Part shown: piece after piece, positions 4,458 through 63,309 of the stretch
Layout: every line of letters starts with the position of its first letter
Numbering within the stretch: position 1 is the stretch's first letter
IMG/VR virus record: IMGVR_UViG_3300019754_000001
Coordinates: 29,905-93,904 of that record
Length of the DNA: 64,000 nucleotides
Origin: a virus
Strand: one strand, 5' to 3'
The notes under the pieces: model-generated
What the model saw: the letters and a program-made list of their open reading frames with translations, nothing else
Told to the model about the DNA's origin: nothing
Database searches by the model: none
Made by a program: the position numbers and the translations under genes

Positions 4458-7400
4458 ACAACCACCTCTGGAACATAGCCAATCCAGGGATTGCTCTAAA
4501 AGTTCCTTTAATGAGGTAAGTTTCATCATGTCTAGCATCATCGCTAGTTGCGTATTTAGTAACCACGCTAGGAATATTGACTACATTGTCAATTGTTCTT
4601 AGAAGTGGGGATGGATTCTTAAACATATCCATAAGAGCTTTAGGGTTCATATAGAGTGATACATCATCTTGCAACCTAGATACTGTCTTATATGCTAATC
4701 TGTAACCTTCAGCCTTCTCATCTTCATCATCAAATGCTAAATTAGCTATCAACATAGCAGCACTCATCATAAGAAACCATTGAATCTCCTTCAAGTTTCT
4801 TCTCATGTTGTCTAAATCTGTTTGCATCTCTTTATTATCTGCATTAAACTCTTCTCCAACTGCTAAGTTCTTTAATAGTATTGATTTCATTATCTTAACA
4901 CTATTGGCAAAGCCTAAGTCTTTATAGGTTCTATATCTACCCTTCACAGGGTCTCCCATCTGGTCATCTTCTTTATAAGTTTCTATTCTAGTTGCAATAC
5001 CCTCAGCTATCCAAGATTTAAGAGCTAATGTAGCCCTCCCTATTAAATACTTCTTAGCTTGCATAGGGGAGGAGGGGTCATAGTTACCATGAACCCTCTT
5101 AATTAGCTGTATTAGATTGTTTCTCTTCTTTGTAAAGCTATTTGACTTAGTAGCATCATACATAGTATCCCATTGCTCACTGTCTAAAACTTCTTCTGAC
5201 ATGTTAGCGTGGTTATCATAAGACTCCCACAAGCTAACTTCTGTGCCGTCTACAGTTTGAACTTTAGTGTGCATTAGATTAGCAACCAACACAGCAGCTT
5301 GATTTAAATATTCAGCCCTTTTAGTAAGTTCCATTGGGGCAGCCAAGCCAAGTTTCTTATTATGCTCTTTAATCTTAGAACTCCCAGAGGCATCCTCCAA
5401 CAAGTCAAACATAATACCATATTTTGCCATAAGACTTCTAACTTTAGTAGAAACATCATCAACACGTCCTGTAGCAGATCTCTTCATTGAGTGCTTTAAT
5501 ACACCCATAGCTCTATTAAGTTCCTGCTTAGTGAAATACCTACCAGAAGCAGCTTCTACACTATTTGATATATACCCATATAAAGTATTTGTAAGTGCTG
5601 AGGAAGCATTCCAACCCAAAGATGTAAAAAAAGTTAACTTTAAAGCTTTATCGAATGCCTTGACGGGTGATACAAATCCAGTATCTTGTACCGCATCTTT
5701 CCTTGCCTGTATACTTAATTTTCTTTCTTCATAATCTTCTTTTTCTACTCTGCCGTGCATCATATCTAGCTCTAATTCATTCTTTTCTTTTTTTAATGCT
5801 TTTAATGTTTTTCTTGCCTCTTTTGTTAATCCTACCTTGGTTGATAAAATTCCACCCTTATTATGGCCTTTATTGTATAATATATTATCTATTTCATACT
5901 CTAACTGCCTAACAACATTAAGTTTTTCTCCCTTACCTATCTTATTTCTTATAATGCTATTGGATTTTGATTTTTCTATTTCTATTGATTTTTCTACCAT
6001 CTCCTTTCCTATTGTTAATATATCTTCTACTGCTGATTTTCTTTTATAGTTAATTGCTGAAAAGGAAAACATTTTAAATGCTTTTATAACATCAGAAGAC
6101 TTGCTATTAAATTCTCTATCGTAGTCACTTTTTATACTATCTCTAGTTCCTTTAACTACATCTAAAATATCTTTTTGTATTTTTATTGATGCTTCCGTAG
6201 CCCCTTTACTAGTAATGTGGCCATTAAATACAGACTCTTGTCTTATATAGTCTTTTTCAGCCTTACTTAATGCAACTCTTAATTTTCCTACAGTATCCTT
6301 AGTAAACTTAATAGGAACTGATTTTATAGGCTTACCGTTACTATCTCTCAACTGAGAATCTAAATCATCCTGCTCCTCTGAAAGGCCCCCATAGACTCTA
6401 TCTAATAGAGACTTTCCTGTAATTACACCTGCTATACCCTCATCTCTAACTTTTTCAAGTATGTCTTTATTTACCTGAGGTAAGTGATTATGTTGTAAAG
6501 CGTATGCAACGTGGGGTGGAAAGTAATCCTTAAGGTTGTTAATATTCTCTGTTATAAAATTATAAAGCTTTCCGTATGTTTCTGGATTGTTTTGTATAAA
6601 TTCATAATCTTTATCATACCATTCACTCTTTTGTCCATTTACCTCACTTTTTGGTGCATAGGATAGAAATCTTGTAACACTGGTAAAGTTAGTAGTTTCT
6701 ACATTATTACTAGTTAACTCTTCATATAACTGCATTGGGTTATTATAAGATTCCCACTCAGCTATCTTACCCTTGTATTCTGCTATTGTTTTAAATCCTA
6801 CCCTCCCCGCATCGTGGTATCTCTGAAAGGTTTCAACAACTGCCACTTTAGATTTATTATAAGATGTAATCTTCTTTTCCATAGATGATACCAATCTCTC
6901 TCCTACAACTTCACCTAATAGGTCTTTTATCTTAGCAATCTCTTCATTTCTAGCGTCCTCATTATCATTACCAAAAAGGATATTATAGTTAGGTAAATAA
7001 ATATTATCCATAAAGTCTTGATAAGCTTTCTTTTTTTGATTCTTCTTTCTAGCATCCTTAACCCTATTAAGTTGACCTAACTCTACTCTTTGTTTAGATT
7101 TCCAATCATAGTAGCTTTGTGAAAAAACATCTACAAGATTTTTAGTTATATTACCATCAGCATCTTTCTGTAACACCCTCTCGTTAAAATCTTTTCCATT
7201 CTTATCGAATCCAGTCTCCTCTAATATCTTAGTCAATTGAATACCAATAGTTTCCTCAAATTCAGCCATAATGTTTCTATTAGTGTCTTTAAGGACTCCT
7301 GATAGATAAGATACTAATTTATTATCTACCCTAGAACTATCCATTACAGCAGACCAAAGTAGCCCTACATCTTTAATTTCTGTTAAATCTTTTAATGGTA

Positions 7401-51944: not shown

Positions 51945-54047
51945 CTAATCTATTTCACCATATAATAACTTATCAAAGAACGAGTCTTCTTCAATTGAGT
52001 AAGCCTCTCTTATATTATTTCTAACAACAATATCTTTACGCTCCTCTAAGTGTATAAGTAACATAAACAAAGCTATTATCCTATCAAAGTTATCATCATC
52101 GTTATAGTCTATAAGCTCTTGTAGAAGTGCTACGCTTTTGATTGTATGCACATATTCTATGTCTTCATTTTCAAATACTTTTCTTTGTAAGTATTCATTA
52201 ACTAGTTCTTTCCCCAGTGTAAAGATGCCAGTTAATCCTGGAGTTCCAAACTCCCTATCTATTGTAGATGACTTACTAGTTTTTCTAACTATCTCGGGGG
52301 CTGGTAGTAATAAATAAGATTGTCTTTTTCCTACAATGTAGTTTTTAAACCCTAGTAAGTTATTCTCATAGTTAGTTACTGCATTAAAGTACATTAGTAA
52401 TAACCTCAACTGCTCATAATATTCTGTAGATTTAGAGGGTCTTCCTGTATACTCAGCCACTATTACTCCAGTAACTTTATTAGCTATCAAAGTACTTCCC
52501 AAGGAGTCCGTTGTACTCTTATCATGGTCATATGGGTCAGTCCCTGCAAGATACATGAATGAAGGAACCTTACCTTCCCTATCTTTAACCGGTTTTTCCC
52601 ATATGACAATAGCACCTGTTGATGGCATTGATTTATCATGTGGGTATTCACTTATCTCTATAACATTAGGATCGTATATAAACTCAGCCTTTCCTTCAGA
52701 TGTCAATGTCATTCTACCTACCCACTTAGCTTCTCTTTCTGTATCATTAGTCTGCAATTCAGCCAACCTATCTCTTAGCTTTTGTATTGGAAAATCTGAT
52801 ACTGCACGTCTTAACAAAGCTTCTTCTGGATGCTTTGGTCTCTCCATCCTCCTCTGTATAATTGAAGCAGGCTCTGCTCTATTAAGCCTCATCTCATCAA
52901 ACTTATCTTCTTCTATCTCATATGCATTATATATATCTGTATTACCGTTCCTATCTGTAAATCCGTTAATATTTGTATAAGCCGGACAGAAGAATGCTGT
53001 TTTTGTTGTAGGCCTTTTAGACCATATATCTGGAATGCCATGAATATTATACGCTCCGGGCTTATAAAACATTTCCTTTAATCCTCTAAACGATTTCATA
53101 TCATCTCCAGAAGTACCAAAGCCAAGCATTAAACCAAACACTACTGAATCTTGTTCAAAAGACTCCCTTGCTATTTGCCAAGCTTTTACTAACTGGGGGT
53201 TAGACCCAGCTTCCTCAAATATCATAAGTTTTCCCCTCTGCCCCCTAACCTTATCAGCATTATCTTTAACAGATAGACCAATAATAGAGGACTTGTAACC
53301 CTTCTCTAACTTTTGTCCTTTATATATTACCTCCTTAGAGGCTCTCATATGTAAGGTGGTATTCTTCTTTTGGGAATGCTTGAAGAAAGCAGTATGCTCA
53401 TTAACAAATTCTCTCATGTTAAAAGCCCTAGTCATAATGGCATCTGAACCATCTAAGTAAGTCTTATCTCCAGCAACAATATAAGTTTTACTGTCTCTTA
53501 TTAAAAAATAGTTACGCAAGGCCATGCTAGCTCCCTTATATGAATAACCTTTACCCCTTGACTTTAAAACTAGTCCATGCTCTCCTGACTGCTCTGCTTC
53601 TTCTATATAGTGGTAAAAATGGTAATCATAATCCCACATTGAAGGAAAAGATACTATCCTATCCCCACTAACTTTTTTACCTTCTCTAATAGCTGCGTGG
53701 TCTTCTTCTGTATATACTACTTTTTCAATAGGCATGTAGTTAAGATACCAATAGTAATACCCTGTAATAAAATCTCTACCTATGTGATACCCTTCTAAAC
53801 ATCTTCTCCTCTCTTCTTTCCAGAATGCCATATACTTAGAAGTCTTAAATCTATTTTCTAAGTGCTTTGTGTAAACTCCAAACTCTTTAAAGTGTTGTGA
53901 AGTAGCTGTGAATTGATCAATATCTCTGAGGGTATGTGAGAAATTTAATCCAATATGGTTACTCTTTACATAATTTTCATTATAGGGACTAGAGGTCAAA
54001 CTCTTCCTTTCCACCACCCCTAATTTTAGAATCGTTAAGTACATCAC
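51945..54047 (-). CDS. terL: Terminase large subunit
   Basis: 700 aa. The ATPase domain has a Walker A-like loop LKSRGKGYSYKGA (161-173) and a Walker B LMIFEEAG (274-281) with the paired glutamates. The nuclease domain begins with YLAGTDPYDHD (499-509), whose D504 is the expected first metal ligand. It cuts and pumps genome DNA into the head through the portal. The start chosen overlaps the preceding gene by 59 nt; the sequence upstream of residue 45 is less typical, so a later non-ATG start cannot be excluded. Confidence 0.92.
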   Translation of the reverse strand: MMYLTILKLGVVERKSLTSSPYNENYVKSNHIGLNFSHTLRDIDQFTATSQHFKEFGVYTKHLENRFKTSKYMAFWKEERRRCLEGYHIGRDFITGYYYWYLNYMPIEKVVYTEEDHAAIREGKKVSGDRIVSFPSMWDYDYHFYHYIEEAEQSGEHGLVLKSRGKGYSYKGASMALRNYFLIRDSKTYIVAGDKTYLDGSDAIMTRAFNMREFVNEHTAFFKHSQKKNTTLHMRASKEVIYKGQKLEKGYKSSIIGLSVKDNADKVRGQRGKLMIFEEAGSNPQLVKAWQIARESFEQDSVVFGLMLGFGTSGDDMKSFRGLKEMFYKPGAYNIHGIPDIWSKRPTTKTAFFCPAYTNINGFTDRNGNTDIYNAYEIEEDKFDEMRLNRAEPASIIQRRMERPKHPEEALLRRAVSDFPIQKLRDRLAELQTNDTEREAKWVGRMTLTSEGKAEFIYDPNVIEISEYPHDKSMPSTGAIVIWEKPVKDREGKVPSFMYLAGTDPYDHDKSTTDSLGSTLIANKVTGVIVAEYTGRPSKSTEYYEQLRLLLMYFNAVTNYENNLLGFKNYIVGKRQSYLLLPAPEIVRKTSKSSTIDREFGTPGLTGIFTLGKELVNEYLQRKVFENEDIEYVHTIKSVALLQELIDYNDDDNFDRIIALFMLLIHLEERKDIVVRNNIREAYSIEEDSFFDKLLYGEID

Positions 54048-57298: not shown

Positions 57299-57365
57299 AT
57301 CTTTAATTTGTAACTTTGTGTCCTTGAAAACGAGCTTTCATGCCTCAAAGTTACAAATTAAAGAT
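57299..57365. repeat. Perfect 20-bp inverted repeat with inner stem
   Basis: Arms 57299-57318 and 57346-57365 are perfectly complementary over 20 bases. The 27-nt loop contains a further TGAAA/TTTCA stem. There is no T run after it on either strand, so it is not a usual terminator. A cruciform, an operator for a dimeric protein or the stem of a leftward transcript's leader is possible. Confidence 0.85.
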
Positions 57366-57547
57366 GACTTTTGCAATACCCAAAATATCAAAAAACTAGC
57401 ATAAAGAAGAAAGGTAAATAAAATAATATAATAAAGAATAAGAATAAAGAAATAAAGAATAAGAATAAAAAAGATAAAGAATAAGTTAAAAGAATTAGAT
57501 TGGGGGATAGTTTATATTTAAGTTTAATATAAATTATATCTTCAATG

Positions 57548-57707
57548 AAGCCATAGAAGAAGACTAGTCGGCGGCTATTGATTAATCCCCCACTTAATAC
57601 CCCCACGCTTAATACTTAAAGATTTTACAACAATAGTAGTCTTACAGGATTTAATCTACTACGTTAGATTGAGCGGCGCGCCGAACTACTGCTTTCTTCT
57701 ATGGCTT
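57548..57707. promoter_or_regulatory. Two divergent copies of CTTCTATGGCTT motif
   Basis: The minus-strand copy (57548-57564) and plus-strand copy (57694-57707) form a 14-base inverted repeat AAGCCATAGAAGAA/TTCTTCTATGGCTT. Each copy is preceded, in its own direction, by CGCCG and ACTA. Each points toward the genes it would serve, the leftward operon and the rightward gene set. A third copy stands before the 1533-aa gene. No host-type promoter was seen in the rightward region, so a promoter for a phage polymerase is a reasonable reading. Confidence 0.5.
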
Positions 57708-58038
57708 AAGTGCTAAAATACTTAGAATTTATATATAGGAAAGACACTTGATAAATAACCCCCCCCCTTCCAATAATTCATTAAGAACAATAGATATAAA
57801 ACAATAGCTACTGGAAAGAGAATAGAGATGAGCCCCTCTATATACTACTTATTGTTGAAAAGGAGGTATTGAAAAAGAAAGGAGAGGAGTAGTGGGGGGG
57901 GTTATTATAGAAAAGTGATATAAAAAAAGGAAATATAAGGGGGGGGTATAATGTAAGGTAGATAATATAGAATAGGAGAATGTGGAGGGATATTATGTGG
58001 GAGGGTATTATAAGGGAAGGTATCGTGTTGGAGATATT

Positions 58039-58072
58039 GGGGGGAGGTGGGGGGGGGAGAGGTGGGGGGGGG
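58039..58072 (+). other. G-quadruplex-prone G-run cluster
   Basis: G6, G9 and G9 runs (58039-58044, 58049-58057, 58064-58072) lie within 34 nt, with further G8 runs near 57893 and 57940. Long enough runs can split to give four G tracts. In an AT-rich genome this is striking and only the plus strand carries the Gs here. Possible roles are replication start or polymerase arrest. Confidence 0.7.
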
Positions 58073-58202
58073 AGTATAAAAAATTTTTATATAAAAAAAA
58101 ATTAGTATGTCGGTATATATATAGAACACTTTAGGAGACCCCTACGGTGTATTGGTTGTATTGAAACCCTACGGGGGAGTAAGCAGATACAGCTCGGTTT
58201 AA

Positions 58203-58227
58203 AAGTGAACCGGATAACGAATCACTT
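58203..58227. repeat. Short inverted repeat before the 169-aa gene
   Basis: AAGTGA (58203-58208) and TCACTT (58222-58227) are separated by 13 nt and end 17 nt before the start codon at 58245. It may be an operator or a leader hairpin that hides the translation start. Confidence 0.5.
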
Positions 58228-58244
58228 CAAATACATTTACAGTT

Positions 58245-58754
58245 ATGGCACAGCCGAAAGCGGAAGCTACATTCAAATCAACGTCTTTATTTAACGGTTT
58301 TAAAGTCCGCCAAGACGGTTCAGTTTACATTTCAACATCCTTAGCAGTAACTAAAGCTACTGAGGTAATATCCAAATCGGGACGAAAAAGGATATACAAT
58401 ATCGGCGATAAAATGCCGTTAGCTATCCCAAGTTCTACAAAGTTCATGAGAGCAATTGGACTGGACTGGACACCTGGAAAAACAATGCTGGATATCTTTT
58501 CCAGAGAGTTAACAGTAGGCACAGCCTACGAGGGCACAGATGGCAAGGAATTCATCTTCGGTTTAGACAAGGATGGTAATCCCTATGAGGGCAATCCTGT
58601 AGGGACTGCTATCGAACGTTTCGAAGCTACGGCTTCAGAAGAACAAGAGGTTAACACACACCTCGTTAATGCAATTGAAACAGCTCAGGCTAATGCCTAC
58701 CTAAACATGGTTGGTGCAATGGCTAAAGAGGAAACTTCTGCCGACTTGGACTAA
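58245..58754 (+). CDS. Probably abundant hypothetical protein, 169 aa
   Basis: 169 aa, with a compact N-terminal half (KSTSLFNGFKVRQDGSVYISTSLAVTKATEVISKSGRKRIYNIGDKMPLAIP) that has the strand pattern of an OB-like or beta-barrel fold. Its C-terminal part is acidic and helical, ending in EETSADLD. An acidic tail with a beta barrel recalls single-strand DNA-binding proteins, but no motif proves it. The gene uses GC-richer codons than its surroundings, has tandem TAA stops and is followed by a strong hairpin, all pointing to high expression. It is the first gene of the rightward set. Confidence 0.7.
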   Translation: MAQPKAEATFKSTSLFNGFKVRQDGSVYISTSLAVTKATEVISKSGRKRIYNIGDKMPLAIPSSTKFMRAIGLDWTPGKTMLDIFSRELTVGTAYEGTDGKEFIFGLDKDGNPYEGNPVGTAIERFEATASEEQEVNTHLVNAIETAQANAYLNMVGAMAKEETSADLD

Positions 58755-58761
58755 TAACAAA

Positions 58762-58787
58762 ATCCCCTCACTTAATTGTGGGGGGAT
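58762..58787 (+). terminator. Hairpin after the 169-aa gene
   Basis: A 10-bp stem ATCCCCTCAC/GTGGGGGGAT (one G-U pair) with a 6-nt loop lies 8 nt after the stop. No U tract follows, so it may stabilise the 3' end of the mRNA or act as a weak terminator instead of a full one. Confidence 0.55.
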
Positions 58788-59669
58788 ACTTGTTAACACC
58801 TGAGGGGCAAGGATAGACTCTCACTTAGTGGATTAATACTACCCACTGGTGGAGGGGCTAATCAATGCTCCACATCCAACTCATGCTACTGATAGTGCTA
58901 CATTACTACGTAATGTTCAGCTCACGGAAAGCCCTCCCATGTAATCTTTTTTACAGGCTACGCAAGAGACCAAGAGGCCAACATATACAAGCCTCCTCCG
59001 TAGATTAGATGAATGAATAAAATAACACAACCCCTTAAGAAGTTTTTTCGCAATATCTTATAGGGTAGTCTCCTCCATTCCTAAGTTTAGGGGGGGGAGA
59101 CAATATATTGTTAAGTTACTAGAGTAGTGGTGATTGTAAGTGGACCAGGTTAATATGGACAGACTCCTAACATACCTCCACCACCCCCCTACAACACTGA
59201 CTTAACAACAATAGTAGGTCACAAAGTCCTCACCTATGCCTTACCTTAATATGTCATGCTTCTGTATGTCATGCTATTGTAGAGTGTGGGGGGGCAGACC
59301 TATGCTAGAGTAGTCTTGGCTAAGATAAGCTTTAGTAAAGTATACTTACTGATGCTTATGGGGCAGTCTGTATGAGGATAAAGACACCCCCCCCCACACA
59401 TCATACTCACCTCAATTCCCCTCCCTACAATAAAACCGATACTGATTCTTTAGTATTCTATTGGTAGTGAAGGTCTCCCCACCCCACACCCTCTCCCTTA
59501 CTTTCCTCACTTCTATAAATTAGATAAGATATCTATTGTTTAAGATGAATGAAATTAAGACTACATTTTATTATAATGTGGAGGAAGTATGTATAACATA
59601 TATTAATACCGTTAAATATACACACACGCTCAATACTCGGCAGAAAACACTAGAGTATAAAACAATATA
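58788..59669 (+). other. Non-coding stretch with hairpins and G/C homopolymer runs
   Basis: No convincing gene on either strand over about 880 nt. Visible elements: a CATTAC/GTAATG hairpin (58901-58915), a GTCTCCTCC/GGGGGAGAC stem with inner CCTA/TAGG (59068-59101), an 11-nt direct repeat TATGTCATGCT (59250-59260 and 59265-59275), and runs of G or C of 6-9 nt (near 59091, 59186, 59286 and 59389). A short frame starting at 59536 is rejected as coding because it runs through the tandem hairpins that follow. Confidence 0.5.
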
Positions 59670-59670
59670 C

Positions 59671-59755
59671 CCCCAGACTGCAAAGTCAGTAAAAAATAGT
59701 AAACTGGGGTTAGCACATCAGACTGTAAAGTCAGGACAAATAGTAAACTGATGTG
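59671..59755 (+). ncRNA. Tandem structured RNA element with covarying stems
   Basis: Two adjacent copies share one architecture. Copy 1 (59671-59709): stem CCCCAG/CTGGGG. Copy 2 (59714-59755): stem CACATCAG/CTGATGTG. Inside each is a GACT-GNAA-AGTC hairpin with a GNRA tetraloop (GCAA, then GTAA), then a strand ending in AAATAGTAAAC. The outer stems differ in sequence but keep pairing, while the inner part is conserved. That is what selection on RNA shape looks like. They might be a tandem ligand-binding or protein-binding RNA. Confidence 0.65.
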
Positions 59756-60300
59756 TTATTTTAATAGTAAATACAACCTCACTAAAGAGTATAACAAGCG
59801 TTAAGGCATACCACACCAATAGGTGTAAGGTCCCCACGATAGAGGGAGCAAAGGTATAGTAAATGAGGCAACTCTTATCTTATTTAACCTGTCAAACCTC
59901 AATATTGAGAAAGACATAAACCCACAGTTTGGTTAGCTGTATAATCATGGAATAAAACTTATAGTGGGATAATGACCCACCACGCTGCATTGATATGTAG
60001 TAAAACAAACGATGGAGTTATAATAACTCCTGCTCCTATTAGTCTCAGGGGGCAAACTAAGAGACTAAATTTAAAACATCTGCAAAACAAGGAATTGCTG
60101 CTACGGAACGATGTGTAGTAGCATTGAGAATTTGAGCAGATGTTTTTAATAAACTTAAGCCTCCAGAGGCCACACTTACAACTTGAGACGTATGTCCAAT
60201 AGTTTGCACAATAAGCATTAGTCCACTTCGTTCAGAAGAAGATAGGTGTTGTAAGTGAAAAGCAGTGAAATGCTGTAATTTAAACTCTAGTATGTTAAAT
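59756..60300 (+). ncRNA. Densely structured non-coding region, part 1
   Basis: Plus-strand hairpins follow one another: ACACC-AATA-GGTGT (59813-59826), CTCAATATTGAG palindrome (59898-59909), GTGGG/CCCAC (59964-59980), GGAGTTA/TAACTCC (60014-60030), TTAGTCTC/GAGACTAA (60039-60068), an 11-bp stem AAAACATCTGC/GCAGATGTTTT (60073-60146) enclosing an 8-bp stem (60097-60122), and a perfect 10-bp stem CACTTACAAC/GTTGTAAGTG (60173-60257). No gene fits. This looks like a large folded RNA or several in series. Confidence 0.55.
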
Positions 60301-60800
60301 ACTAAATCTCTGAAAATATGTGGAAAGTGTAGGTTATGGAGAGTTGAGTAATGAAGGGCTAATACCTGGAGCTTAGATATCTACAACACTATTTAACTTA
60401 TTAGGGTTTATTTATTAAAGAAAAGCTGCACCCTCCGCAATTAAATACAAACCGGGTTGTAGCCTAAATAGCTTCACAGTGATGTGTGGAGTAGACGAAA
60501 GTCTGAGGAGATGAAAGAGCTCTTATTGACAACACCCTTTATCAGGGGCGAAACTCCGCCTGCATTAAGCGTCTCGGAAATTGTCAATATATATATTATG
60601 TAGGATGAAGGGGGCTACCGAAAGCTCTCCTTCATACCTATGTATTAAAGCCTCATCGTGGGCATTATCTAGTTCGTCCTTACATCTAATATGTGAGGAA
60701 TCTACCCCTTAAAGCTGGAGGGATAGTAGGACAAAAGAAGCTCTAAGGTTACCAGATAAGTGTAGGTAATCTTAGTATCAACACTAGTTACTATATGCAT
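60301..60800 (+). ncRNA. Densely structured non-coding region, part 2
   Basis: Hairpins: AGAC-GAAA-GTCT with GNRA loop (60493-60504), ATTGACAA/TTGTCAAT (60525-60588), ATGAAGG/CCTTCAT (60605-60635), TCCTTACAT/ATGTGAGGA (60677-60699), CTACCCCT/AGGGATAG with one mismatch (60702-60726) and an 11-bp CTAAGGTTACC/GGTAATCTTAG stem with one G-U pair (60743-60775). The region reads continuously on from part 1. About 190 nt at its start (60301-60490) show fewer obvious stems. Confidence 0.55.
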
Positions 60801-61146
60801 GTAGTAGCGACTAATGGAGCAATTTGTTAGTAAATACGTTTAGAGACAACTCTAGTCTTGAAGCGGTATAATGGGCGGTTCGAAACGTTTGTTATATTAA
60901 AAAGATGAATCACTACTTATATAGAGATGCTCCTTTAGAGGGGAGTATGTAAGACTCTATAGTGAGGATTCAGATTACTTGGGAAGAGCCTCATGGAGAG
61001 CCCTTCCCTCGTAATCTAAATAAGGCTACCCTTAGCCTACTAATAATAAGGAATGGTGCAGAAGATTAGCTCTTCGGTCTATCGAAAGATAGGTTTAAAC
61101 CCTCTACGAATGTGTAGGTGTGGAGTTCAAACCAATAAATTAAGAT
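60801..61146 (+). ncRNA. Densely structured non-coding region, part 3, leader of the 122-aa gene
   Basis: A 13-bp stem with a symmetric 2x2 internal loop (60972-61017: AGATTAC+GGGAAG with CTTCCC+GTAATCT) is followed by GGCTA-CCCT-TAGCC (61024-61037), GAAGA-TTAGC-TCTTC (61061-61075), a GNRA hairpin CTATC-GAAA-GATAG (61079-61092) and CTAC/GTAG (61104-61117), with GGTTT/AAACC (61092-61133) able to close the last part. It ends 13 nt before the start codon at 61147, so it could also control that gene. Confidence 0.55.
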
Positions 61147-61515
61147 ATGACGATTATAGAAACAAAAGCCTATCTTAAAGGCTACCTAGCTGCACTGGGG
61201 ACTAATGTGCAGAATACTAGAGATGAAGATTCCTTATGGAGTCTCAACCAAAAATTAATGTATAACGAGATAGTAACAGAGGTTGGAACCTTGGGATTTA
61301 CGATCAATAGGGGGATATGCCCTGTTGGTGGAAATGTTACTTACGCTTGTACAAGTCCCGAAAATTCTACTGTAGATATATATCTGGGGTGGGCAGACAA
61401 CAAGTTCTTTAAAGAGGCCTTTGAAGGACTCGAAATGGAGTTTGTATACCAAGAGACAAGAATAAGCATAGAGGAGCTTGAAAAACTCTTATATGTTTTA
61501 GAGATAAAAGACTAA
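61147..61515 (+). CDS. Hypothetical protein within the RNA-rich arm, 122 aa
   Basis: 122 aa, acidic, helical at both ends with a central beta section (GFTINRGICPVGGNVTYACTSPENSTVDIYLGWADNKFF). No known motif. The start follows a structured leader and has no Shine-Dalgarno sequence. It stands alone between two non-coding stretches, so it is probably read from a long transcript. Confidence 0.6.
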   Translation: MTIIETKAYLKGYLAALGTNVQNTRDEDSLWSLNQKLMYNEIVTEVGTLGFTINRGICPVGGNVTYACTSPENSTVDIYLGWADNKFFKEAFEGLEMEFVYQETRISIEELEKLLYVLEIKD

Positions 61516-61634
61516 TAATATTTAATCTTCAATTAGCGACAATAAGTGAGAGTGTCCGCTTCATTAAGAAGAAGTAAGAGATACTGTTAAAATACTATTA
61601 TACACTTATAATAAAAATATGATGTAAAATAAAT

Positions 61635-61802
61635 ATGAACTATCGAAGAGAAGCTAGAGAAGTAACACAAAACCATTATGGAGGATATTGTGAGATGTGT
61701 AGAAAGTTAGGAATTAAAATAGTTCCTTATCATAAATTTACTATGGAATTATATGATAAAATTAAAGAGTTAAGTAAAATAAAAAAAGATTTTAAAAGAT
61801 AA
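61635..61802 (+). CDS. Small basic protein with CxxC motif, 55 aa
   Basis: A 55-residue frame from ATG at 61635 to TAA at 61800-61802. It starts MNYRREAREVTQNHYGG, contains YCEMCRKLG (a CxxC pair) and ends in a lysine-rich helix (DKIKELSKIKKDFKR). The paired cysteines and charge suggest zinc or nucleic-acid binding. The A-rich leader resembles those of true genes here. Moderate confidence, since it is short and lacks neighbours to couple with. Confidence 0.5.
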   Translation: MNYRREAREVTQNHYGGYCEMCRKLGIKIVPYHKFTMELYDKIKELSKIKKDFKR

Positions 61803-62100
61803 GCCCTAATTAAACTCCTAACACAGTTAAGACTACCCTCACTAACGCATGCAAAGCGAATAAAGGGAAACGCTGTGGCCTATTGGCAATAGGTGGAGAG
61901 TATTAATTGGTATTTAAAGAATTGGAGTGCCTTGCCAAAGCTAGGTAAAATACCCACTCACACTAAGATTCAATAGATACTTGCCAAGGGGCTTTATATT
62001 ATTAAAGGCAGGCCACCCTTCTGTGGTAATTCTCCCTTATGATATATTAGAATTTGAGGACTTTGGGGAAGTTTTAAACAAAGATAAAGACCTGAAATTA
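61803..62100 (+). ncRNA. Structured non-coding region between small genes, first part
   Basis: Hairpins include CCTATT-GGC-AATAGG (61879-61893), GGTATTT/AAATACC (61909-61954) and a compound TGCC..CTTTA/TAAAG..GGCA stem near 61983-62012, then CCAC/GTGG around 62020. No coding frame of note. The style is the same as in 59.7-61.1 kb. Confidence 0.45.
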
Positions 62101-62565
62101 CACGTGCCTGAAAGAGCATGAATAAGAATTTATAGTTACTGACTGAACGATACTATATATAGAGGGATAACAACCCCACAGGTATTGAGTTGTCCCCCCC
62201 AAACTGTCGTAGTATGGGGGAGCTCAGACAGGACAAGGAAAGTAACGAGAATGATAGACTTAAACTATTAGGCTACTGAATCCTCTACGTAAGTAGAAAG
62301 CTTATTGGAAACAATAGGAAGATTGTTACCTCTGACAAGGTAATATAGTGGAGAATGGCACAGGTATGTGAGATAAAGCTCACATCTATCATTACAATCT
62401 TAACAAGCGTCAAGCATGAAGCCCTGAGAGGGGTGGAATAGTTTAAATCGATATACAACACTGTCTCCTTTATTGGAAGTGGAAAATGTAGAAGATTGTG
62501 ACTATGACCTAAACCCTACCATGTTGGAGGGCATGGTGCTAAAATATTAACTCTAATTTAAAGAC
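62101..62565 (+). ncRNA. Structured non-coding region with GNRA-capped hairpins, second part
   Basis: A stem GGGA-CAAC with bulge pairs with GTTGTCCC (about 62172-62204). A GNRA hairpin TCTAC-GTAA-GTAGA (62284-62297) is followed at once by another, CTTATTG-GAAA-CAATAGG (62301-62318). An 8-bp stem AAGATTGT/ACAATCTT (62319-62326 with 62394-62401) then closes a multibranch loop holding TTACCT/AGGTAA (62326-62343) and ATGTGAG/CTCACAT (62366-62385). The regular, adjacent stacking is typical of compact structured RNA. Confidence 0.58.
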
Positions 62566-63309
62566 ATGAAAGTAAACATTAATCGCCTTGAAGATGAGGA
62601 ATACTTAACTGAAATTAAGTTAGGTAAGGAAAGAATAGTCAGGAGGTGGTATAGAGATACACCCCATATTTACGATTACACAAAGTTTTTAAGACTAGTT
62701 GATAAGTTAGTCGGCAAGCATGTTAATGTGCTTAAAAGAAAGTTACGTAAGGATAGGTGCTATCAATCTCCAGAACAGATAGTGAGGAGATATATGTTAG
62801 TGTTGAATAGGAATGGAGACATTATAAATGAGGACGGCTTAGTATATAAACCTACTCACGGAAGGGCTAACAGTTATTTAGTTAACTCTGATGGTATAAT
62901 ATCTATTACATATGAGAGAGTAGCTAAAAAGCAACCCACACTGACAAAGAGTGAAATTCTAACAAAAAAGATTGATAATCTTAGTGAAGCATATGGATTA
63001 GCTTTGAGGCTCTATAAATGCAGACAAGATTGGGGATTAATACCTCCATCAGATAGAAGGAGAGCCATGCGTAATATCCTATACGCATATCAAAGCCAGG
63101 CTGATGACCTATATACTGCTTACATGCACTCCAACAATTATAATACTAACAAATTTGATGGAGACAGAGTTAGAAAAATACCACAAAGGTATATAAAGGC
63201 TCTAAAAGGTAAGAAAGAGCATGTGAAAGTAAGGAAGGTGGAAGTAATTAAACCCACCCCCATACGAGTAAACTCTCCATATATCCACCTACCTGGAATA
63301 TGTGGATAA
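62566..63309 (+). CDS. Basic hypothetical protein, 247 aa
   Basis: 247 aa, strongly basic (many R and K, especially 50-70 and 215-235), mixed helices and strands. I read KLVGKHVNVLKRKLRKDRCYQSPEQIVRRYMLVLNRNGDIINEDG as a helix pair followed by a beta hairpin. The composition suits an RNA- or DNA-binding protein, and its place beside structured RNAs invites that idea, but no family is recognised. It begins about 165 nt after the multibranch element. Confidence 0.65.
   Translation: MKVNINRLEDEEYLTEIKLGKERIVRRWYRDTPHIYDYTKFLRLVDKLVGKHVNVLKRKLRKDRCYQSPEQIVRRYMLVLNRNGDIINEDGLVYKPTHGRANSYLVNSDGIISITYERVAKKQPTLTKSEILTKKIDNLSEAYGLALRLYKCRQDWGLIPPSDRRRAMRNILYAYQSQADDLYTAYMHSNNYNTNKFDGDRVRKIPQRYIKALKGKKEHVKVRKVEVIKPTPIRVNSPYIHLPGICG

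What the first reader, a model, noticed from the sequence alone, without database searches (positions are those of the whole stretch)
59671..59755. Tandem RNA motif with compensatory changes: a possible new riboswitch-like or protein-binding element
Two neighbouring 39-42 nt units keep an identical design (outer stem, inner GACT-GNAA-AGTC hairpin, AAATAGTAAAC strand). The outer stems have different sequences that still pair (CCCCAG/CTGGGG versus CACATCAG/CTGATGTG), and the tetraloop differs only within the GNRA class. Covariation between copies in one genome is good internal evidence for RNA function.
Basis: seen in the sequence. Interest (0 to 1): 0.72.

Follow-up and report, generated by a model that had tools for sequence, protein, structure and literature searches.

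The report
Duplicated RNA module in crAss-like phage
Two neighbouring copies of a small RNA-like fold sit at the start of a long, gene-free, hairpin-rich stretch in a crAss-like phage genome, which looks like an uncharacterised phage RNA region rather than a riboswitch.

Summary
The sequence observation holds: two ~40-nt units (59671-59709 and 59711-59758) share a near-identical core, and each is closed by an outer stem whose flanks differ but still pair. The outer stems are well supported (P 0.93 and 0.999), with about 1e-5 chance of both flanks pairing. The inner GACT-GNRA-AGTC hairpin is not the preferred fold (P 0.12 and 0.05). In copy 2 the ACU(GU) strand pairs with the conserved (AU)AGU strand instead, leaving an AAA bulge. 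Real two-sided change between the copies is 2 of 9 pairs, which is weak evidence of selection.

The units lie in a 2.39-kb ORF-poor gap of an apparently complete, 93.9-kb crAss-like phage genome. Just downstream is a hairpin-rich region (59777-60967, MFE z -7.7), and tRNA genes follow about 4.5 kb on, across the circular join. No Rfam family matches. No homologue was found by covariance model, pattern or BLAST, including in the five nearest phages. Three of those relatives also carry ORF-poor gaps at the same place.

Best reading: a duplicated structural or binding module near the 5' end of a large phage non-coding RNA or RNA cluster. A riboswitch is unlikely, because no downstream gene is in reach. 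Function is inferred only.

The parts
59671..59709 (+). Unit 1: CCCCAG/CTGGGG outer stem with conserved core CAGACTGCAAAGTCAG...AAATAGTAAACTG
59711..59758 (+). Unit 2: 11-bp outer stem TAGCACATCAG/CTGATGTGTTA with the same core; inner ACUGU/AUAGU stem with AAA bulge favoured
59777..60967 (+). Hairpin-rich non-coding region directly downstream; MFE z -7.7 on plus, -5.2 on minus; possible long-range closing helices 59777-59790/60954-60967 and 59833-59845/60651-60662
   Evidence: the long-range pairing is not beyond shuffles
58755..61146 (+). ORF-poor gap that contains the units
58245..58754 (+). 169-aa ORF upstream of the gap (relatives have a 139-150-aa ORF at the same place)
61147..61515 (+). 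122-aa ORF that ends the gap

Best explanation
The two units are paralogous copies, made by tandem duplication, of a small RNA module near the 5' end of a long plus-strand non-coding RNA or RNA cluster beside the divergent gene modules of a crAss-like phage genome. Each is a stem that carries a conserved A-rich 3' strand (AAAUAGUAAAC) opposite a short inner stem. Most likely it works as a structural or binding element: the outer stem presents the AAA bulge and purine-rich loop to a protein or to another part of the RNA. It does not work as a switch for a downstream gene. Shown: the two similar copies, outer-stem pairing, ORF-poor context, plus-strand structure excess. Inferred: transcription, a common transcript with the downstream region, and any binding.
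For: Outer stems with different flanks both pair. Gap windows fold with mean plus-strand z -3.6 over the seven 350-nt windows of 58760-61209, against -0.75 (sd 1.64, n 109) elsewhere on plus and -2.1 for the same seven windows on minus. 59777-60967 has z -7.7 and 31 hairpins against 21 +/- 3 in 24 shuffles. ORFs in the gap score at or below weakly coding. TAGTAAA, the core of the conserved strand, occurs 7 times in the gap against 0.63 expected from the rest of the record. Related phages L089, L010 and L139 also have ORF-poor gaps behind the positional counterpart ORF, and L089 has tRNA matches there.
Against: No homologue anywhere, so no evolutionary covariation beyond two pairs between two copies. 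The 350-nt window that holds the units has only z -1.89 on plus and -1.71 on minus. Long-range pairs are no more than in shuffles, 24 against 15 +/- 13. The gap of L139 is only weakly structured. Neighbouring stretches 58756-59640 and 61147-62337 (the latter partly coding) also fold well, z -5.2 and -5.8 on plus, so the excess is not specific to the part next to the units. No expression data.
Confidence: 0.45

Rival explanations
1. DNA-level element: two ~45-bp repeats that bind a phage protein, or form hairpins in single strands, at a replication origin or promoter between the divergent gene modules.
For: Over 52-64 kb the cumulative GC skew is lowest around 57-60 kb; genes diverge here; the core contains a GACT/AGTC dyad; a promoter-like site with 10 of 12 matches lies at 59549-59577, but such sites are as frequent in shuffles (13 found, 12.6 expected).
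Against: Compensated flanks outside the shared core are not needed for a double-strand site; the skew change is also explained by gene direction.
Confidence: 0.2
2. Recent tandem duplication without a function.
For: No homologue in any collection searched; only 2 two-sided changes, reached by 115 of 500 shuffles.
Against: Chance pairing of both different flanks is about 1e-5.
Confidence: 0.17
3. A small self-cleaving or processing RNA that trims the long transcript.
For: The same divergent side of another crAss-like contig (L131) carries a Hatchet ribozyme and a RAGATH-9 RNA. Copy 2 gives a weak twister-P3 alignment, 14.8 bits, E 1.4.
Against: Far below the twister-P3 gathering score of 39.9, and the stretch that stands for 34 consensus positions is only 3 nt here.
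Confidence: 0.08
4. Cis-regulatory riboswitch or leader of a downstream gene.
For: Tandem arrangement and A-rich conserved strand, as in some aptamers (recalled, no call).
Against: Next convincing ORF is about 1.4 kb downstream; no Rfam match.
Confidence: 0.05
5. Part of a small coding gene, the 68-aa ORF 59545-59751, whose 3' end holds the repeats.
For: An open frame covers both units and scores slightly positive, 0.045 per codon.
Against: Three of the genes beside the gap score 0.19-0.34 per codon and most of the ORFs beyond it 0.12-0.17, though the 247-aa ORF at 62566 scores only 0.07; a stop-free run of 71 or more codons occurs in 86% of 100 shuffled gaps; no PHROG match.
Confidence: 0.05

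Closest known systems
GOLLD and ROOL RNAs (large ornate phage and prophage RNAs)
   Same: Long hairpin-rich non-coding stretch in a phage genome, near tRNA genes (description of GOLLD and ROOL from passages of PMC12286853 and PMC7567579).
   Different: No match to any Rfam model at gathering score, and neither family listed with permissive filters; no homologues; no transcript known.
Twister ribozyme type P3 (RF03154)
   Same: Order of outer stem, AAGUC, AAAU, AAC resembles copy 2 in one weak alignment.
   Different: 14.8 bits against a gathering score of 39.9, and the stretch that stands for 34 consensus positions is only 3 nt.
DUF805b RNA (RF02914)
   Same: 35-nt RNA with an A-rich 3' strand containing AGUA, found in the leader of the neighbouring ORF of the related phage L139.
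   Different: Consensus hairpin with an unpaired 3' tail, not a nested stem; not reported for the tandem units at E 10 or better.

Membership tests
GOLLD / ROOL | Match to the Rfam covariance model | tested here: not met
   No family at gathering score in the window; neither listed at E 5 or better in 58700-61200.
GOLLD / ROOL | Encoded in a phage or prophage, often near tRNA genes | tested here: met
   Crassvirales-like terminase; four tRNAs at record 407-2101, about 4.5 kb downstream across the 123-nt terminal repeat.
GOLLD / ROOL | Conserved ornate secondary structure by covariation, with pseudoknots | tested here: inconclusive
   Strong single-sequence fold but no homologue; long-range pairs not beyond shuffles.
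GOLLD / ROOL | Homo-oligomeric cage and abundant transcript | not testable with these tools
   Needs RNA-seq and cryo-EM.
Riboswitch | Leader of a regulated gene with an expression platform | tested here: not met
   No convincing ORF start for about 1.4 kb downstream.
Riboswitch | Ligand binding | not testable with these tools
   Needs a binding assay.
Twister ribozyme | Rfam score and P1 with cleavage site | tested here: not met
   14.8 bits against 39.9; the [34] stretch is 3 nt here. That P1 lies in that stretch is recalled, not from a call.
DUF805b RNA | Rfam model match | tested here: not met
   Not reported for 59655-59775 at E 10 or better.
Crassvirales (the phage that carries it) | Terminase and capsid protein similarity | tested here: met
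   Terminase about 40% identical to crAss-like phages, phrog_6681, major capsid protein up to 29% identical.

The most novel reading that the evidence does not exclude
The units are the duplicated 5' domain of a new class of giant (about 1.2-1.4 kb) ornate non-coding RNA in a crAss-like phage lineage, comparable in kind to GOLLD and ROOL but unrelated in sequence.
Probability: 0.18. Interest if true: 0.75.

Novelty: new variant of a known kind. Interest (0 to 1): 0.4.

Why it matters
Large structured phage RNAs such as GOLLD and ROOL form RNA-only cages but have no known function (passages of PMC12286853). A crAss-like phage lineage with its own long hairpin-rich RNA region would widen the range of such RNAs to an order of phages that is common in the gut (recalled). 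The tandem units give a small, testable piece of it.

Tried and rejected
Homologues of the units: exact patterns in viral contigs with the CAG/CTG frame (none), with free inner stem (one hit, L136, which lies inside a phage protein ORF) and without the outer frame (none). The covariance model on 40 sources (window plus 39 of the 136 loci then held) gave, besides the two units, seven further matches up to E 5; the best, L023 at E 0.0035, lies inside the ORF that follows the terminase, the rest have E 0.45 or worse. The records of L010, L089, L090 and L009 gave none, nor did that of L139.

Homologues of the whole gap: blastn in 'phages' (none); blastn against 133 loci (best E 0.012, short); pairwise blastn and nhmmer of 21 segments (nothing significant for the gap 58755-61146); DNA search of the L139 record (best E 0.67).

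Stop-codon reassignment: reading TAG as Q opens no frame longer than 114 aa in the gap.

The inverted repeat 59777/60967 looked like a closing helix at first. It has P 0.97, but shuffled sequences make as many long-range pairs, so I do not rely on it.

Literature: searches listed nothing on a large RNA of this kind in crAss-like phages. I read passages only, from PMC12286853 and PMC7567579; the other papers I saw only as search listings.

Full report
Setting. The window is bases 29905-93904 of a 93,904-base virus record. Its last 123 bases repeat the first 123 bases of the record, so the record looks like a complete, circular or terminally redundant genome. The large terminase (51945-54047, minus) is about 40% identical to crAss-like phages and matches the terminase family phrog_6681. 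The major capsid protein matches the same group at up to 29%. The nearest terminases found are 46-50% identical (L089, L009, L010, L090). The nearest exonuclease is 45% identical (L139). Very near records may be hidden from these tools, as their outputs say.

Observation. They share the core CAGACTGYAAAGTCAG...AAATAGTAAACTG. They are the only copies in the record. The outer stems are well supported by folding: 0.93 for CCCCAG/CTGGGG and 0.999 for the longer TAGCACATCAG/CTGATGTGTTA. If the flanks were random, pairing of 3 and 8 further positions would have a chance of about 1.3e-5.

The inner GNRA hairpin has probability 0.115 and 0.047. In copy 2 the ACUGU strand pairs with AUAGU of the conserved strand (0.896), leaving AAA bulged. 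In copy 1 no inner fold dominates. The inner stem strands are identical in the two copies, so comparison cannot decide between the folds. Two-sided changes are 2 of 9 pairs, and 115 of 500 shuffles reach that.

Surroundings. The units lie in a gap without convincing ORFs from 58755 to 61146. Over the seven 350-nt windows of 58760-61209 the mean z is -3.6 on plus and -2.1 on minus; elsewhere it is -0.75 (sd 1.64) on plus and -0.78 (sd 1.45) on minus, n 109 each. The window holding the units is among the weaker ones, -1.89. The stretch 59777-60967 has z -7.7 on plus and -5.2 on minus. Two coding-control strands gave -2.35 and -0.18, but 58756-59640 plus and 61147-62337 plus also gave -5.2 and -5.8. 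It holds 31 hairpins in its best fold against 21 +/- 3 in 24 shuffles, 2 GNRA loops against 0.4, and no clear excess of long-range pairs. TAGTAAA occurs 7 times in the gap against 0.63 expected; two of these are the units, and the count is not corrected for the many 7-mers tested. Four tRNA genes follow at record 407-2101, about 4.5 kb beyond the units across the join.

Relatives. L089, L010 and L139 have an ORF of 139-150 aa at the same place and strand, followed by ORF-poor stretches. In L089 the stretch includes two tRNA matches, and the end of that ORF with the start of the stretch folds very strongly (z -12 for 3800-3601). The L139 stretch is only weakly structured. Of 40 loci scanned for ORF-free stretches of 600 nt or more upstream of the terminase, 32 have one by the standard code and 16 when TAG is read as Q (ORFs of 70 aa or more masked, real or not). 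I found no significant sequence similarity to the window's gap.

Mechanism. The data fit best with a duplicated stem-and-bulge module in a non-coding plus-strand RNA region of the phage. The conserved A-rich strand opposite a short inner stem is the natural candidate for binding a protein or docking into another helix. This last step is inference. A gene-control switch is unlikely because no convincing gene start follows for about 1.4 kb. A DNA-level repeat at an origin or promoter, a neutral duplication, and a processing RNA remain possible.

Comparison with known families. GOLLD and ROOL share the setting (long phage RNA near tRNA genes; passages) but not the sequence model. Twister-P3 is a weak, below-threshold alignment. 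DUF805b occurs in the leader of the L139 neighbour ORF, not in the units. I therefore file the finding as a new variant within large or clustered phage non-coding RNAs, at low to moderate confidence.

Noticed in passing
window 58118-58244; L139 8721-8850 minus; L089 4132-4265 minus; L010 5491-5590 minus: Conserved leader upstream of the 139-169-aa ORF: GAAACCNTACGGGGG...CAGAT in window and L139, ATACCTATGGGGRTGACCC in L089 and L010; the L139 leader contains a DUF805b RNA (44 bits).
   Followed up: partly
L089 4550-4725 minus; L010 6160-6345 minus; L090 about 273-430 counted from the end of its 683-nt segment; possible window analogue 57530-57730: Stem-closed element of about 170 nt between the divergent modules (CCAGAGAAAGAT ... 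CTTTCTCTGG in L089 and L010), with a weaker match in L090; the window has a comparable 30-nt inverted repeat.
   Followed up: partly
L131 2190-2288 minus and 656-816 minus: Hatchet ribozyme and RAGATH-9 RNA in a crAss-like contig binned with a Bacilli MAG.
   Followed up: no
L137 205-292 (record start): tRNA-like stretch with a GGTTCGAGTCC T-arm that ARAGORN and Rfam do not call.
   Followed up: no
window 57763-58080 and 59091-59400: Runs of 7-9 G or C around the divergent region; L089 has similar G-rich stretches.
   Followed up: no
record 4901-6050 (L137): Other plus-strand windows with strong folding, z about -6.5, over and behind a predicted 262-aa ORF.
   Followed up: no
window 57299-57365: Perfect 20-nt inverted repeat with 27-nt spacer, a strong hairpin on both strands (z about -6).
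   Followed up: no
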